Shown: piece after piece, positions 9,288-33,974 of the stretch
Numbering within the stretch: position 1 is the first letter of the stretch
Layout of the letters: each line of letters opens with the position of its first letter
Source: Thermoleophilaceae bacterium
Lineage (GTDB): Bacteria > Actinomycetota > Thermoleophilia > Solirubrobacterales > Thermoleophilaceae
NCBI GenBank assembly: GCA_030448005.1
Contig: JAUJNT010000008.1
Location: forward strand, 53,849-87,871
Direction of reading: 5' to 3'
DNA length: 34,023 bases
Made by a program: the position numbers and the translations under genes
Notes under the pieces: generated by a model
Told to the model about the DNA's origin: nothing
Database searches by the model: none
The model's input: the letters and a program-made list of their open reading frames with translations, nothing else

Positions 9288-10597
9288 GCGCCGGAGGGGG
9301 CCGCCGCTTCGAGCCCGCTGGTCCTATCCGGGGCACCTACAGGCCTCCCGCGGACAAGTCGATCTCCCACCGCGCCGCGCTGTTCGGCGCCATGTCCGAC
9401 GTGCCGGTCACCGTGCACAACTACCTCGACTCGGCCGACACGGGCAGCACCCTCGATGCGCTGCTGGAGATCGGCGCCGGCATCACGCGGGACGGTGACG
9501 ACCTGTTGGTGCGGGGGGTCGGGCTACACGCCGCCCTCGAGGCCACCGGCGGCCGGCTCGACGTGGGCAACTCGGGCACGCTTCTGCGGCTCCTGCCCGG
9601 CTGGCTCGCCGGACAGCCGGGTGGCGAGTGGACGCTCGACGGCGACGAGTCGATACGCCGCCGGCCGGTGGATCGCGTGGTCGAGCCGCTGGCGCTGATG
9701 GGCGCGGGGGTGGCCGCCCGCGAAGGGCGCTACCCGCCGCTCACCGTGCGGGGCGCCGAGCTACACGGCATCGAGTACCCAGCCCCGGTGGCGAGCGCGC
9801 AGGTCAAGTCATGTGTGCTGATCGCGGGAATGCTGGCCGACGGCACCACCACGCTCACCGAGACTCGCCAGAGTCGCGACCACACCGAGCGCATCCTGCA
9901 GCGCTCGCGGGTGCCGCTCGAGCGCGACGGGCTGACCGTCACGGTCACCCAGGTCGACGAGCTCGAGCTGGACGAGATCACAGTGCCGGGAGACCCGTCA
10001 TCGGCTGCCTTCATCGTGGCGGCCGCCTGTCTCGTGCCGGGCTCTAGGGTGGTGATCGGCGATGTCGGTCTCAACTGGACGCGCACGGGGTTCCTCCGCA
10101 TCGCGCAGCGGATGGGAGCCGTGATCCTCGGGGACCTCGAGGAGCCCGGCACCGTTTCCTCCGAGGAGCCGGTCGGTGAGCTCGACGTGGCCCACGGGCC
10201 GCTCGAGGGCACGGAGGTGGGTCCGGACGAGGTGCCGACCTCGATCGATGAGCTGACGCTGGTGGCGCTGCTCGGCGCCTTCGCGGAGGGGGACACCACG
10301 GTGCGTGGGGCTGCGGAGCTGCGTCACAAGGAGTCGGACCGCATCGCGGGCGTGGTGGACGGGCTGAGGGGGATCGGCGCCGACATCGCGGAGACCGCCG
10401 ACGGCTTCTCGGTGCGAGGCAACGGGGCCCGGCTCGAGGGGGGTACCCTCGACGCGCGCGGCGACCACCGGCTGGCGATGCTGGGCGCCGTGGCGGGACT
10501 GGCATCGCGCAAGGGCGTGCAGGTCGTGGGGATGGAGGCTGCGGCGATCTCCTACCCGGCGTTCGAGCAGGACCTGGCCGCGTTGCTTCCGGGCTGA
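9284..10597 (+). CDS. aroA: EPSP synthase (3-phosphoshikimate 1-carboxyvinyltransferase)
   Basis: Adds the enolpyruvyl group of PEP to shikimate-3-phosphate, the sixth shikimate step. I take the GTG at 9284, which overlaps tyrA as GTGA and gives 437 residues, the usual family length; the open frame upstream is only tyrA in another register. Motifs: PPADKSISHRAALFGAMS near residue 22, LDVGNSGTLLRLLPG, RRRPVDRVVEPL, SAQVKSCVLIAGMLA, TRQSRDHTERIL, and the late ELRHKESDRI. It is the last gene of the aromatic run. In many bacteria cmk follows aroA directly; here a 3-kb accessory segment intervenes. Confidence 0.95.
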   Translation: MSAGGGRRFEPAGPIRGTYRPPADKSISHRAALFGAMSDVPVTVHNYLDSADTGSTLDALLEIGAGITRDGDDLLVRGVGLHAALEATGGRLDVGNSGTLLRLLPGWLAGQPGGEWTLDGDESIRRRPVDRVVEPLALMGAGVAAREGRYPPLTVRGAELHGIEYPAPVASAQVKSCVLIAGMLADGTTTLTETRQSRDHTERILQRSRVPLERDGLTVTVTQVDELELDEITVPGDPSSAAFIVAAACLVPGSRVVIGDVGLNWTRTGFLRIAQRMGAVILGDLEEPGTVSSEEPVGELDVAHGPLEGTEVGPDEVPTSIDELTLVALLGAFAEGDTTVRGAAELRHKESDRIAGVVDGLRGIGADIAETADGFSVRGNGARLEGGTLDARGDHRLAMLGAVAGLASRKGVQVVGMEAAAISYPAFEQDLAALLPG

Positions 10598-25631: not shown

Positions 25632-27037
25632 TCACCCGATGGCGAGGGCGGCCCGGTGGCGGTAGAGCTTGCTGAGGTTGTGAGTCGCGGTGATCAGTCG
25701 CCACTCCGACCGCGCGGCGGCTCTGCCGCGGCGTAAGAAGCGATCGATCCGGCGGTTGAACTTCGTGTCGGCGAAGACGGGCTCGATCATGCCCTGGCGT
25801 TTTCGATAGAGCTCGCCGCCGCGGTCGGTCTGAAGCGCGCTGCGCATGAACGCGTAGGGGCCGCCATCCCACCCTGGTCGTGGTGTCTTGCGTCCGCTCG
25901 CGTCCGGCGGGACGAGCACCTGGATCCTCGGTTGACAATCTCATGCATCTGTTCTGTGTGCCAGTAGCCGGCGTCGGCGACCACGACTTCAGGCGTCTCG
26001 GACACGCCGGCGTTCGTGAGCTCGCCGAGGGTGGCGTCGACCATCGGGCCGAGGTTGCCGAAATCGGCGGTGGAGGCATTGACCTCAGCGGCGATCACGA
26101 TCTGGCGATCGTTAACTGCGGCCTGCGCGTTGTAGCCCTGCAAATAACCCTGCGGCGCCTTCAATCTGCGCGAGTCGGGATCGGAGGTGTTGATCACCCC
26201 AGCCGGCGTATCGGGTGGGGAATAGGGCTTTGGCGGCCGGCTGCTGGGCTGCTCTCCTGCCGCGCTCCTGGCCGCCCACATTTCATCTTGGCGCTCGGCC
26301 GCGCGGCACTCGACCGCGAGCTCCTCCTCAAGCCGCCGGGCGCACTCGTGTAACCGGTCGGGCCGCGACCTAGGGATCGGACGTGCCTCCTCGGCGCGGC
26401 GCTGTTCGAGGCGCTGGCGGGCCTCGCGCAACCACGCCCGCCGGCCCTTCGAGCTGCGAAAGCCCTCTGGCAACACGTCAACGCTCGATCCCGGCCCGTA
26501 GCGCTCGTCCTCCTCGCGGTCGACAGCGTCGGCCTGCTCGAGGATCTCGCTGGCGATCTGCTCGTAGTCTGTGTTCGCGTCACGGCTTGCGTTCGCGTGC
26601 AGTTTCGTGCCGTCGATCGCGACCACCCCAAGCTCGACCAGCCCCGCCTCGGCGCACAACGACAACACCTCGCCGAAGAGGTCGGCGAGCGCCGCCTCGT
26701 GGCGCTGGCGAAAGCGCGCGAGCGTTGTGTGATCGGGCGCCTTGTTGCCCGCGACGACTCGCACCGCGACGTCCTCGACGCACGCCCGCTCGATCTTGCG
26801 CGACGAGCGCTCCCCGCGCGCGTAGGCGTAGAGAAGCAGCGCCACCATCATCCCCGGATCGTGCGCAGGCCGCCCATGCCCATCGTCGCGATAGACGCCG
26901 TAGAACGCCGAGAGGTCCAGCTCCGCGACGGCGTCGACTACAAACCACGCGAAATGGCCCGCCGGCAGCCACTCCCGCAGCGACGGCGGCAAAAAAAGCT
27001 CCTGATCACGATCACACGCGATGAAGTTCTGAGACAT
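25632..27037 (-). pseudogene. IS1182-family DDE transposase, frameshifted
   Basis: The frame from ATG 27037 carries the N-terminal DUF772-type domain (LFLPPSLREWLPAGHFAWFV, then HDPGMMVALLLYAYARGERS), the first catalytic Asp in VVAIDGTKLHANAS, and the second in VVVADAGYW. Near 25926 one base is missing (CGAGG where CGAGGG is expected). The reading then leaves the real sequence, which continues in another frame as IQVLVPPDASGRKTPRP to YRKRQGMIEPVFADTKFNRR and ends at 25632. The third catalytic residue, the Glu in GMIEPVFADTK, lies beyond the shift, so the normal product lacks the full active site. The repaired protein would be about 468 residues, normal for the family. Confidence 0.85.
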
Positions 27038-29995: not shown

Positions 29996-30606
29996 CAGTC
30001 CGCTAGCTTGGCGAGCATCTCTTGGAGGTATCGAGAACCTCGAGGTCGTCGGGCTGTTCGGGAACGGTGTCGCCCATAGCTCAGTATCTCGCGAGCTGGC
30101 CCGTCCCAGCGACCTGGGATCGCTGGGCGACCTGCCGCCCGGCTCTCGGGAGATCATGTAGCCCGGTGTCGTCGGGCGTTCACGGCTATCGCCGGCGGGC
30201 CCACGGTGACGCCCCCGGCCGACATCCGGATGCGCCCGCGCGCCTGCCGAATAACGGCGGCGGTAGCTGCGGCTACAGCGGCGGCGAGACGGAGCGAGGC
30301 TGTACGGTCGCGCCCTCACCAGGCGCCGCCGTCGCACTTCGGAACCCAAGCGTTTATCCGCGGCAAGTAACCAAAGCTTGCATCCCCGGTGCCTTGAGGC
30401 GCCGTCTATGCCTTCATCAGAACCTGGAGAGCCTCGGTCCTGCCTTCAGCGCGGTCTTTGCCTTCATCAGTACCTGGTCGAGACGACAACCTACCCGGCG
30501 CCGGCGCCGGCCCGCCGCTACGAGCCCTGACCGAAGACGCCGCTCAGCGGCATCCGTATGGACCGTAGCTTGCTTGACCGGTGGGTCGCGGAGGTCCCGG
30601 CAGGGC
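29996..30606. other. Gap with short relic frames and a duplicated 24-mer
   Basis: Apart from the split small frame at 30003-30077, I find no gene here. The open frames are Arg/Pro-rich shadows. A degenerate 24-base direct repeat at 30404-30427 and 30454-30477 is the only structure seen. Confidence 0.4.
30404..30477. repeat. Pair of 24-base direct repeats (22/24 match)
   Basis: The unit containing TGCCTTCATCAG and ending ACCTGG occurs at 30404-30427 and 30454-30477, 50 bases apart, with the shared octamer TGCCTTCA once more at about 30441. Both units translate to AVxAFIxTW but in different frames, so they look like a duplicated coding fragment rather than a functional array. Too few units and too short a spacer for CRISPR. 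Confidence 0.55.
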
Positions 30607-30910: not shown

Positions 30911-32167
30911 CTACGCACCGTCGCGGGCGCGCCGCAGCTCGCCTCGGCCGACGCGCTGCGCGAGGTCGGGCGCGAAGACGCCGAAGCCGGTCCGCGCCCA
31001 CAGCGAGTCGGTCTCGAACCACGGGCGGCCGTCGTCGAGCAGCGCGTCGGGCGGCCGGTTGGCACGCAGGGCGGCGCGGCACGTGGCGCAGGCCGGCACG
31101 GTGAGGCCCCCCGGCCAGTCGACGGGCAGCGTCGATCCCGGGTGGCGCGGATCAAAGAAGCACAGCGGTGCGGTGCGGGGCGCGGGGCGGCTGGCCTCGA
31201 GCGCCTCGGCGGCGGCGAGCGCGCGGCTGCCGTCCTCGACGAGCACGAGCGCACCGACGAGGTCGACCATGCGCGGCTCGGACGCCAGGACGCGGCGCGC
31301 GGCCGCGTAGGCGGCCAGCGCGTGCTGCTGGCGCTCCTGGGCGGTATCGCTCGCGGGCGTGCCGGTCCGGTCGATCCGGTCGGCGAAGGCGATCAGGCGC
31401 TCCTCGATCTGCTCGCGCAGCTCTCCGGCCTGGGCGCTGTGGGCGTGCTGAAAGACGCGCGCGGGGATCAGCGGCTCGTCGGCGGGGGCCGGGCGGGCGT
31501 GGCGGCGCCGGCGCCGATGCACGAGCGCGCCGCCGGCGCCGGCGCCGAGCGCTGTCAGCACGGCGACCGGCAGCAGCCACCCGACGCCGCCATCCTGCTC
31601 CTCGCCGTCGGCCGCGGCGGGCGGTGGCGGGGCTAGCGACTCTTCGCGCTGCCTGCGCAGGCGCGCCTCCGTGCGCGCGTAGCGGGCGGCGAGATCAGGG
31701 GCGCGCAGTGCCTCGACGAAGCGCCGGACCTTGGCGATCTGCGGCTCGTCGTAGACGCCGGACTCGAAGTTGCCGACTGTGCTCGCCTGGTTGAGGTCAG
31801 GGTGCTCGTCGTCGACGCCGAACGCCCTGTGGCTGAGCAGGCGCCCGGAGACCGTGACGTAGACGCCGTCCCGACCCAGGCGCCCGTGGACCACGCCGAG
31901 GAAGCGGCCCGCGTCGCCGCCGTAGCGATCCCCGGCCGTGATCGGCACGAGCACGACCCAGACGGGATACGGCGCCGCCTCGATCGCCCGCAGCACCGCG
32001 CGCCGCTGCGCGGCGGGGACCGCCTCCGCCAAGGACGGATCGACGACGAGCGGGGAGCGGCGCAGCTGGGCCGCGATGTCCTTGGGCAGGGTGGCCGCGG
32101 CGGCGGGGAGCGCGCCGGCGAGCAGCGCGGCGAGCGCGACGGCCACTCCGATCAGGCGGCAGATCAA
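30911..32167 (-). CDS. Membrane-anchored protein with extracytoplasmic TPM-like domain and C-FFDPRH/CxxC C-terminal domain (paralog C)
   Basis: 418 residues. A signal peptide occupies 1-24 (ALAALLAGALPAAAA). An extracytoplasmic domain spans about 25-180 (SPLVVDPSLAEAV, then VWVVLVPI, then GRLGRDGVYVTVSG), a membrane helix 196-217, a basic stop-transfer RRRRRR, and a cytoplasmic part 222-418. The latter ends with Cys 336-FFDPRH, PACATC (Cys 360, 363) and FETDSLWARTGFG, which could bind zinc through three Cys and His 342. The outer domain resembles TPM domains in layout, by inference only. Its start overlaps the stop of the middle paralog by four bases (ATGA), so the three genes form one operon. 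Function unknown. Confidence 0.8.
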   Translation of the reverse strand: MICRLIGVAVALAALLAGALPAAAATLPKDIAAQLRRSPLVVDPSLAEAVPAAQRRAVLRAIEAAPYPVWVVLVPITAGDRYGGDAGRFLGVVHGRLGRDGVYVTVSGRLLSHRAFGVDDEHPDLNQASTVGNFESGVYDEPQIAKVRRFVEALRAPDLAARYARTEARLRRQREESLAPPPPAAADGEEQDGGVGWLLPVAVLTALGAGAGGALVHRRRRRHARPAPADEPLIPARVFQHAHSAQAGELREQIEERLIAFADRIDRTGTPASDTAQERQQHALAAYAAARRVLASEPRMVDLVGALVLVEDGSRALAAAEALEASRPAPRTAPLCFFDPRHPGSTLPVDWPGGLTVPACATCRAALRANRPPDALLDDGRPWFETDSLWARTGFGVFAPDLAQRVGRGELRRARDGA

Positions 32168-32856
32168 CGCTTGCCCCTGCGTCGGCGCCGAGGGGGGGCG
32201 GTACGGGGTGGGCGGGCAGCCACGTGTCGCGCGCGCAGGCGCGCCAAGCCACCGGCGAACAGGCCGAGGATGCCACCGGCGATGGCCGCATCCAGGGCAA
32301 CATCCGCGGTAGACTCGCCGTATCGACGGGTGCGCCAGTTCTCGTACGGCTCCAGCGGGCTCAGGTACGGCTCGTCGGTCGTCCGCCCGCGCGGGGCCGC
32401 CGCGACCTCGGCGACGAGATCCCGTACGCGTTTGACCGCCCCTGCGGCCGTGCGGGCCTCGCTACTACTGGGAAACGCCAGGCTGTTCGACACGCGGATC
32501 TCGCGCGGGATCGCCCACGTGCCCGCCGAGAAGTAGCCGTGCTGGTCGATGACGAGATAGACCCCCGGGCGTCCCAGGCGCTGGTGCAGCGAGGCCACGA
32601 TCCGGTTGCCGTCGCCGCCGGACTCGTCGTCCTCGAACTCCGGCACGAGCGCGACGTGGAAGTCGACGGGGCTGCGCCGCAGCGCCCGCACGAGACGGAC
32701 CTCCTCGGCGCTGCTGAAGAACCACAGCAGGTCCGCGTCGATCGCGAGCGGTCGCTCGCGCAGCTGCTGGGCGAGGTCGTCGAGGCGGTCGGCGGCGCCG
32801 GCCGGCGACGCGTGGACGAGCAGCGCCAGCCCCACAGCGATCACCAGCGCCCTCAT
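32164..32856 (-). CDS. Secreted/anchored paralog with the shared extracytoplasmic domain only (paralog B)
   Basis: 230 residues. Signal peptide 1-21 (LALLVHASPAGAA) and an outer domain (RERPLAIDADLLWFFSSAEE, then VDFHVALVPEF, then HQRLGRPGVYLVIDQHGYFS) align in order with the other two proteins. A membrane helix near 185-205 precedes a short Arg-rich tail (PPRRRRRGKR). It lacks the cytoplasmic Cys domain entirely. Both ends overlap its neighbours by four bases. It may form a complex with the two longer paralogs; that is inference from the operon. Confidence 0.78.
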   Translation of the reverse strand: MRALVIAVGLALLVHASPAGAADRLDDLAQQLRERPLAIDADLLWFFSSAEEVRLVRALRRSPVDFHVALVPEFEDDESGGDGNRIVASLHQRLGRPGVYLVIDQHGYFSAGTWAIPREIRVSNSLAFPSSSEARTAAGAVKRVRDLVAEVAAAPRGRTTDEPYLSPLEPYENWRTRRYGESTADVALDAAIAGGILGLFAGGLARLRARHVAARPPRTAPPRRRRRGKR

Positions 32857-33974
32857 CGCCGGGCCTCGCCGCCGAGCACGCGCGCCGCGAGCTGGTCATC
32901 GAGCGCGCCGAAGCCGGTCCGCGCCCACAGCGTGTCGCGCTCGAAGTAAGGCAGCCCGCCGTCCTGCACCGCAGCGGGCGCGCGCCCCTTCGCCACCTTC
33001 CGTGCGCACGGGCGACACGCGGGGATGTCGGCCTCCTCGCGCCCGAGACGCCAGCGCGTTCGCGTGTTGGCCGCGCCGTGGCGCGGATCGAAGAAGCACG
33101 GCGCAGAGGGCCGCCCACGCAGCGTGGCATCGGCGCGCCGCACGAGCTCGAGCGCGGCGAGCAGGGCGAGCGCATCGTCCTCGTCTGCGTCTTCGAGTAG
33201 CTTCGAAGCGGCCGCGTAGGCGTCGAAGGCGGGGGTCGGCGGAGCGTCGGCCGCGGCGAGCGCGGCCGACAGCCCGGCCAGCTGCCCGTGCGCCCGGTCG
33301 CGCAGCACCCGCGGATCGAGCGGCGGCGCGGCGGCGAGCGCAGCCTGTGGCGCAGCGCTCTGCTCCCGGCGGCGGCGGCGCATCGCGATCCACGGCCAGC
33401 CGGCGGCGGCGAAGCCGAGCGCGCCGGTCGCGAGCCCGGCGGCCACGACCGGGGCCGCCTGCACCGTCGCCTCGCCGCCGCGCCGCGGCACTGCGTCGCG
33501 CCGGCCCGTCGTCAGCAGCTCCACGGCATAGCGCGCGGCCTCACCCGGACCAGCCTCGGGACGATCGTCGTAGACGGCGCTGCGCAGATCGCCGGTGTCG
33601 AAACGGACCGGCACGCCGAACGCCTGGCCGTGCACGCTCGGACCGAGCTCGACGGCCAGGTAGATCCCGTCGCGTTCGAGCCGGTCGTGCAGCAGATCGG
33701 GCAGCGAATCGAACGTCCCGAGCCCCGGCTCGCCGCCGAAGGCCGGCGCGACGACGACAAACACCCGCACCCGCGCGGCGGCAACCGCGCGGCGCAATGC
33801 CCTGATCTGCGCGGGCGGCACGGAGCGGCTTGCCGCGCCGCTCACGAAGACGGGGTCGGTGCGCAACGCCTTGACCATCGCGTTGACTCTCTCGTCGGCC
33901 TGCGCCGGCGTCGCGCTGAGGCACAGCGCGACCGCCAGCACGGGCATCAGCAGGATCGTGCAAGTCCGCGCCAC
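32853..33974 (-). CDS. Membrane-anchored paralog with C-FFDPRH/CxxC C-terminal domain (paralog A, first gene)
   Basis: 373 residues from GTG 33974. Signal peptide 1-26 (LLMPVLAVALCLSATPAQA) and an outer domain about 27-165 (RTDPVFVSGAASRSVPPAQI, then VRVFVVVAP, then DRLERDGIYLAVELGPSVHG). A membrane helix lies about 172-197, followed by MRRRRRE. The cytoplasmic domain ends with Cys 293-FFDPRH, IPACRPC (Cys 320, 323), PYFERDTLWARTGFG and a short tail. The C-terminal signature is nearly identical to that of the third gene, showing a duplication. It is the first gene of the trio within the window. No family name is known to me. Confidence 0.8.
   Translation of the reverse strand: MARTCTILLMPVLAVALCLSATPAQADERVNAMVKALRTDPVFVSGAASRSVPPAQIRALRRAVAAARVRVFVVVAPAFGGEPGLGTFDSLPDLLHDRLERDGIYLAVELGPSVHGQAFGVPVRFDTGDLRSAVYDDRPEAGPGEAARYAVELLTTGRRDAVPRRGGEATVQAAPVVAAGLATGALGFAAAGWPWIAMRRRRREQSAAPQAALAAAPPLDPRVLRDRAHGQLAGLSAALAAADAPPTPAFDAYAAASKLLEDADEDDALALLAALELVRRADATLRGRPSAPCFFDPRHGAANTRTRWRLGREEADIPACRPCARKVAKGRAPAAVQDGGLPYFERDTLWARTGFGALDDQLAARVLGGEARR

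What the first reader, a model, noticed from the sequence alone, without database searches (positions are those of the whole stretch)
30911..33974. Overlapping operon of three paralogous secreted/membrane proteins with an unnamed C-FFDPRH...CxxC...LWARTGFG domain
Seen: three genes overlap by ATGA, and each has a signal peptide, a similar outer domain and one membrane helix. Two end with an almost identical cytoplasmic motif, Cys-FFDPRH, PACxxC and F-E-x-D-(S/T)-LWARTGFG; the middle one lacks it. Inference: a hetero-oligomeric envelope sensor or chaperone system in which the outer domain (TPM-like in layout) is coupled through the membrane to a zinc-binding internal domain. I know no characterised system with this composition.
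Basis: partly seen in the sequence, partly recalled or inferred. Interest (0 to 1): 0.72.

Follow-up and report, generated by a model that had tools for sequence, protein, structure and literature searches.

The report
Three-part TPM-fold envelope protein system
Three adjacent genes encode membrane proteins whose outer parts share the TPM fold known from photosystem and respiratory-complex helper proteins, two of them carrying a probable zinc-binding domain inside the cell, and this undescribed trio is kept together across distant Actinomycetota, with two of the three fused into one protein in Streptomyces.

Summary
In detail: genes A (32853-33974), B (32164-32856) and C (30911-32167), minus strand, overlap by 4 bases each. 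All have a signal-peptide-like start, an outer domain and one membrane helix; A and C end in the Cx5H...CxxC...LWARTGFG domain, B does not. Pfam, NCBIfam, PADLOC and PDB sequence searches name none of it. Predicted structures settle the outer domain: it has the TPM fold (A Z 13.1, B Z 11.7 to AtTLP18.3), although the Pfam TPM model misses it. The A-B-C run is conserved in 11 of 232 genomes of the order while flanking genes differ. In Streptomyces, A and B are fused in one protein, followed by an overlapping C gene in 8 of 10 loci. Three TPM and two zinc-type domains are kept in both arrangements. All 36 system proteins carrying the inner domain have CxxC; 38 of 40 lone relatives have CxxD. Best reading: a hetero-oligomeric, envelope-spanning scaffold or assembly chaperone. 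Composition, linkage and fold are shown by computation; complex formation, zinc binding and function are inferred. It is a new variant of a known kind (TPM membrane proteins).

The parts
32853..33974 (-). Gene A, 373 aa (GTG start): signal peptide, outer TPM-fold domain (res. ~24-160), membrane helix (res. 178-207), inner three-helix region (res. 221-285), Cx5H...CxxC domain (res. 293-372)
   Evidence: (pLDDT 86.8)
32164..32856 (-). Gene B, 230 aa (ATG start, ATGA overlap with A): signal peptide, outer TPM-fold domain with an invariant DESG loop, membrane helix, no zinc-type domain
   Evidence: (pLDDT 78.7)
30911..32167 (-). Gene C, 418 aa (TTG start, TTGA overlap with B): signal peptide, outer domain, membrane helix, inner helices, Cx5H...CxxC domain
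32859..33098 (-). Inner Cx5H...CxxC...LWARTGFG domain of A (ligand candidates C293, H299, C320, C323)
   Evidence: invariant in all A and C proteins
30914..31162 (-). Inner Cx5H...CxxC...LWARTGFG domain of C (ligand candidates C336, H342, C360, C363)
33495..33905 (-). Outer TPM-fold domain of A
   Evidence: Z 13.1 to 3ptj, 130 residues aligned, 2.8 A
32389..32790 (-). Outer TPM-fold domain of B
   Evidence: Z 11.7 to 3ptj, 128 residues aligned, 3.1 A
31694..32083 (-). Outer domain of C, same family by sequence (not folded separately)

Best explanation
The three genes make one hetero-oligomeric membrane complex. A, B and C each put a TPM-fold domain outside the cytoplasmic membrane; A and C also put a helical region and a probable zinc-binding (treble-clef-like) docking domain inside. 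The complex most likely works as an envelope scaffold or assembly/repair chaperone: the outer TPM platform holds or matures an extracytoplasmic or membrane-complex client, and the inner zinc domains tether it to, or report to, cytoplasmic partners. Shown by computation: gene run, TPM fold of A and B, conservation, fusion of A with B, constant 3 TPM : 2 zinc-type composition. Inferred: physical complex, zinc, client, chaperone activity.
For: Conserved A-B-C order in 11 of 232 genomes of the order, with 1-8 base overlaps and different flanking genes between genera. A and C form separate well-supported clades, so the paralogues were kept as distinct parts (100/99 and 97/90). AlphaFold models of A and B match TPM structures far above the rest. 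Streptomyces carries an A+B fusion with C downstream and overlapping in 8 of 10 loci; the first fusion TPM groups with A (99/93) and the downstream gene with C (94/77). Hydropathy of the fusion fits all TPM domains outside and the zinc-type domain inside. TPM proteins elsewhere act in photosystem II assembly/repair (PMC13089150) and have been proposed as assembly chaperones beside PspA, band-7 and zinc-ribbon proteins (PMC11237479); a mycobacterial respiratory supercomplex subunit also matches the fold.
Against: No client, no conserved functional neighbour and no experiment. Profile-profile comparison with TPM was weak (probability 9-10%) and Pfam TPM finds nothing here, so the TPM assignment rests on predicted structure. 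B and the second fusion domain are not resolved as one clade. One Streptomyces genome has the fusion without C (L128). The inner zinc-type domain was not folded alone and has no PDB match.
Confidence: 0.5

Rival explanations
1. A transmembrane stress sensor: the outer TPM domains sense an envelope signal (metal, ligand, damage) and the inner zinc domain passes it to a cytoplasmic regulator.
For: Single-pass layout with an outer domain and an inner zinc-type domain; TPM genes occur in Psp/band-7 stress operons elsewhere (PMC11237479); a band-7 gene lies tail-to-tail with the operon in one genus.
Against: No kinase, HTH, sigma-factor or anti-sigma gene is a conserved neighbour; neighbours differ by genus.
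Confidence: 0.2
2. An extracytoplasmic phosphatase or other enzyme of the TPM_phosphatase type.
For: Pfam names the family a phosphatase and AtTLP18.3 was reported with acid phosphatase activity (cited in PMC13089150).
Against: The canonical DNG motif before the inner strand is altered: A has (R/K)DG, C mostly DA/DG, lone relatives mostly no acid there; Ravi et al. hold that TPM is unlikely to be a phosphatase (stated in PMC12419801).
Confidence: 0.07
3. An accessory part of type VII-like (WXG100/EccC) or Tad-type secretion.
For: In 3 of 9 Streptomyces loci with wide flanks the fusion-C pair lies beside WXG100 genes, one also beside an FtsK/SpoIIIE ATPase; three loci lie near CpaB/Tad-like genes by eye.
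Against: The window genome and six more genomes with the trio have no WXG100 match at all; other Streptomyces loci lie elsewhere, for example between tsaD and groES (by eye).
Confidence: 0.08
4. Three tandem duplicates without joint function, kept together only by duplication history.
For: A, B and C are paralogues of each other and of lone-gene relatives.
Against: Old divergence (A/B 25% identical in the window; A and C clades separate before the genera split), constant order, B always without the inner domain, and A+B fusion with retained C.
Confidence: 0.1

Closest known systems
TPM domain proteins (Pfam PF04536; AtTLP18.3, Psb32, BA41/BA42, cg2496, Rhom172_1776)
   Same: Predicted fold of the outer domains of A and B (Z 11-13); extracytoplasmic location; membrane anchor in many
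   Different: Not recognised by PF04536; altered DNG motif; three different TPM subunits in one operon; a zinc-type inner domain
Long actinobacterial TPM membrane proteins (signal-TPM-helix-coiled region-Gly-rich tail)
   Same: Same overall layout as the lone relatives of this family, including the Gly-rich tail
   Different: No Cx5H...CxxC/CxxD domain seen; single genes
B. subtilis ydjFGHL (PspA, zinc ribbon, TPM YdjH, band-7; described in PMC11237479)
   Same: TPM and zinc-ribbon modules used together at the membrane
   Different: Zinc ribbons and TPM lie on different proteins there; PspA is present; only one TPM protein
Mycobacterial III2IV2 supercomplex subunit 6adq_J / 6hwh_O / 8hcr_J (probably PRSAF1)
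   Same: Matches the TPM-fold model of A (Z 8.2-8.9)
   Different: Small accessory subunit, no paralogue trio, no zinc-type domain known to me; chain identity as PRSAF1 not verified here

Membership tests
TPM domain (PF04536) | Match to the curated Pfam model | tested here: not met
   none; no PF04536 match in the window genome or 40 relatives
TPM domain (PF04536) | TPM fold | tested here: met
   Searches (A; B): best rows are TPM structures, Z 10.9-13.1 and 9.9-11.7; on predicted models
TPM domain (PF04536) | Sequence-profile homology | tested here: inconclusive
   hhalign probability 9-10%, P about 0.003, aligned at the start of the domain in the expected register
TPM domain (PF04536) | Canonical DNG motif before the inner strand | tested here: not met
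   (R/K)DG in most A, DG/DA in C, mostly TG/PG in lone relatives; the long actinobacterial TPM proteins also vary there
Treble-clef or zinc-ribbon domain | Four conserved ligand candidates in two pairs | tested here: met
   Cx5H and CxxC in all 36 system proteins
Treble-clef or zinc-ribbon domain | Fold | tested here: inconclusive
   first pair, hairpin 304-319, helix 321-328 beginning at CxxC; barely tested this part; no PDB sequence relative
Treble-clef or zinc-ribbon domain | Bound zinc | not testable with these tools
   needs metal analysis
Psp/Ydj-type envelope stress operon | PspA or band-7 partner in the operon | tested here: inconclusive
   band-7 only as a convergent neighbour in one genus, no PspA noticed; the upstream side of the window operon is cut off
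Type VII secretion accessory | WXG100 genes in genomes with the system | tested here: not met
   none in the window genome and in 6 of the 10 other order genomes with the trio

The most novel reading that the evidence does not exclude
A previously undescribed obligate three-TPM, two-zinc-domain transmembrane machine of Actinomycetota, in which the outer TPM assembly acts on a client and the inner CHCC zinc domains couple it to the cytoplasm; a separate lineage from the CHCD single-gene family.
Probability: 0.35. Interest if true: 0.7.

Novelty: new variant of a known kind. Interest (0 to 1): 0.52.

Why it matters
What TPM domains do outside photosystem II is an open question, with phosphatase and assembly-chaperone views in conflict. 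A conserved heteromeric TPM system with a natural fusion gives a compact test case: stoichiometry, partners and client can be sought in culturable Streptomyces and Solirubrobacterales. It also defines an unnamed, widespread actinobacterial inner domain (CFFDPRHGPS...PACAADA or PACxxC) that no searched family library names.

Tried and rejected
The search for related loci with A alone found nothing; with profile A3 only two named loci, one of them Patulibacter. Pfam, NCBIfam, PADLOC and PDB sequence searches gave only sub-threshold chance rows. Defence-system reading: no PADLOC match. A conserved functional neighbour was sought and not found: Fpg/Nei in the Patulibacter group, acyl-ACP thioesterase in G214, HAD hydrolase in G203, band-7 in g52. 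A type VII link was considered and is not general. The inner helical region resembles the DnaK lid and other helical bundles at Z about 7-9, which is ordinary for helices. Rfam: nothing in the window. Promoter scan empty; the two terminator-like sites lie inside gene A and are not credible. C-type genes in a phylum-wide draw of 396 genomes: only the window genome and G397, so the system is uncommon. One family-wide Streptomyces search failed technically and was rerun smaller. Papers naming such a trio were not found, within an open-licence library only.

Full report
Check of the observation. The three minus-strand genes are real and lie as described. Transcription order is A (32853-33974), B (32164-32856), C (30911-32167). 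A and B share ATGA; B and C share TTGA. Each protein starts with a signal-peptide-like segment and has one later membrane helix. The window ends at a contig end, 49 bases upstream of A.

Nothing names it by sequence. Pfam, NCBIfam, PADLOC and PDB sequence searches gave no credible match to A, B or C, to the relatives, or to the end domain alone.

Linkage. A profile search over 232 genomes of the same order found the contiguous run A-B-C, same order and strand, in 11 genomes: the window genome and ten from another family of the order. Two contigs are named: Patulibacter sp. and an unassigned actinomycetote; NCBI places Patulibacter in Solirubrobacterales. Genes overlap by 1-8 bases in every run measured. 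B lacks the end domain in all ten sequences aligned. Flanking genes differ between genera, so the three genes stay together while their surroundings change. In one genome (G220) C looks frameshifted near its membrane helix. A tree of full-length A, C and lone relatives gives A (100/99), C (97/90) and the lone genes as three groups.

Lone relatives. Many Actinomycetota carry single genes with the same outer domain, membrane helix and a CFFDPRHGPS...PACAADA domain followed by a Gly-rich tail; the window genome has one too (G000:C1:397488-398642). Some have the inner part alone, without outer domain. In a draw of 396 genomes of the phylum, 52 had a profile match at E 0.001, about half of them strong.

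Fold of the outer domain. AlphaFold2 on a 50-sequence alignment gave A with pLDDT 86.8, most of the outer domain above 90; B gave 78.7 from ten sequences. Foldseek's three best rows for A are TPM structures (probability 0.96-1.00, E 0.02-0.1), as are the best rows for B. VIA-align gives A Z 13.1 to AtTLP18.3 (130 residues, 2.8 A), 12.9 to BA41, 11.7 to Rhom172_1776, 10.9 to Psb32, and 8.9 to a mycobacterial respiratory supercomplex subunit; B gives 11.7, 11.4, 10.9 and 9.9 for the first four. Unrelated alpha/beta rows lie clearly lower. Sequence methods alone could not establish this: Pfam TPM has no match in 41 genomes of the group, and profile-profile probability was 9-10%. Classical long TPM proteins of actinobacteria share the layout of the lone relatives, Gly-rich tail included. 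C was not folded separately; its outer domain is of the same family by sequence.

Inner domain. Eleven positions are invariant in 19 A and C proteins, among them Cx5H and CxxC. In the model the first pair precedes a hairpin and CxxC opens a helix, the order of a treble-clef finger; this is inference, as this part was barely tested against PDB. The fourth position separates the two kinds: C in all 36 system proteins found (10 A, 9 C, 10 Streptomyces fusions, 7 Streptomyces C), D in 38 of 40 lone relatives.

Fusion in Streptomyces. Two genomes first showed a protein with two outer domains and one end domain. A search of 101 genomes of that genus found 13 with a match, ten of them read here as complete or near-complete fusions. 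The genus is named through a plasmid record, Streptomyces sp. NBC_01237, of the same length as one of these replicons. In 8 of 10 loci a C-type gene follows and overlaps; one locus ends at a contig end and one lacks C. In a tree of outer domains the first fusion domain groups with A (99/93), the downstream gene with C (94/77), and the second fusion domain falls near B without resolved support; it matches the B profile and carries DESAGD where B has DESGGD. The fusion has one end domain, so both arrangements hold three TPM domains and two zinc-type domains. Hydropathy of the fusion (four helices in two of three sequences examined) places the TPM domains outside and the end domain inside.

Mechanism. 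Fusion of neighbouring genes with kept composition is the strongest computational sign that A and B, and by linkage C, act in one complex. TPM proteins elsewhere serve assembly or repair of membrane complexes: TLP18.3 and Psb32 at photosystem II (PMC13089150), and a proposed chaperone-like role beside PspA, band-7 and zinc ribbons (PMC11237479); a later paper repeats that phosphatase activity is unlikely (PMC12419801). Here the DNG motif of classical TPM is altered. I therefore favour an envelope scaffold or assembly chaperone with inner docking domains (0.5) over a sensor (0.2), with enzyme and secretion-accessory readings lower. The type VII association seen in some Streptomyces loci cannot be general, since the window genome has no WXG100 match.

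Verdict. An ordinary-looking hypothetical operon is in fact a conserved, undescribed three-component TPM-fold system. The pieces are of a known kind; the combination, the inner domain and the fusion are absent from the libraries and papers that could be searched. Function remains untested.

Noticed in passing
L055 6847-7728 and L028, L031-L038 (genus g48): Small proteins consisting of the inner helical and CFFDPRHGPS domain alone, beginning MPFFGHKTRHEREWEEV, without outer domain or membrane helix: the inner module also exists as a soluble protein.
   Followed up: partly
L123 4325-5560 and 5352-7157: A membrane-anchored inner-domain protein with CxxC and no TPM domain lies next to a lone TPM relative in another actinobacterial family (G273): a possible independent two-gene version.
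   Followed up: no
L140 815-1252, L141 121-5069, L142 10377-10685: In three Streptomyces genomes the A+B fusion and C lie beside WXG100 genes, in one also beside an FtsK/SpoIIIE ATPase; possible functional or merely syntenic link.
   Followed up: partly
L050 5755-6750 (and L048, L049, L051): A band-7/SPFH gene lies tail-to-tail with the operon (one small gene between) in four or more genomes of one genus (g52).
   Followed up: partly
L010 843-3910: Near the lone paralogue in the window's own genome are genes whose motifs (ICGVCGSSH; GCEGCSISF) look like large and small [NiFe]-hydrogenase subunits; between them and the paralogue lie two small highly charged coiled-coil proteins.
   Followed up: no
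window 25787-27037: DUF772 transposase-type gene (PF05598): an insertion element about 4 kb downstream of the operon.
   Followed up: no
window 30399-30427 and 30449-30477: Two 29-base direct repeats, 90% identical, 50 bases apart, in the stretch downstream of the operon.
   Followed up: no
L051 about 9600-9700: The C gene of G220 appears frameshifted near its membrane helix (sequencing error or real).
   Followed up: no
G112:C159:14946-15167 (L042): A contig-end fragment of an A/C-type end domain with CxxC in a further genus (g17) suggests the system is somewhat wider in the order than the 11 complete runs.
   Followed up: no
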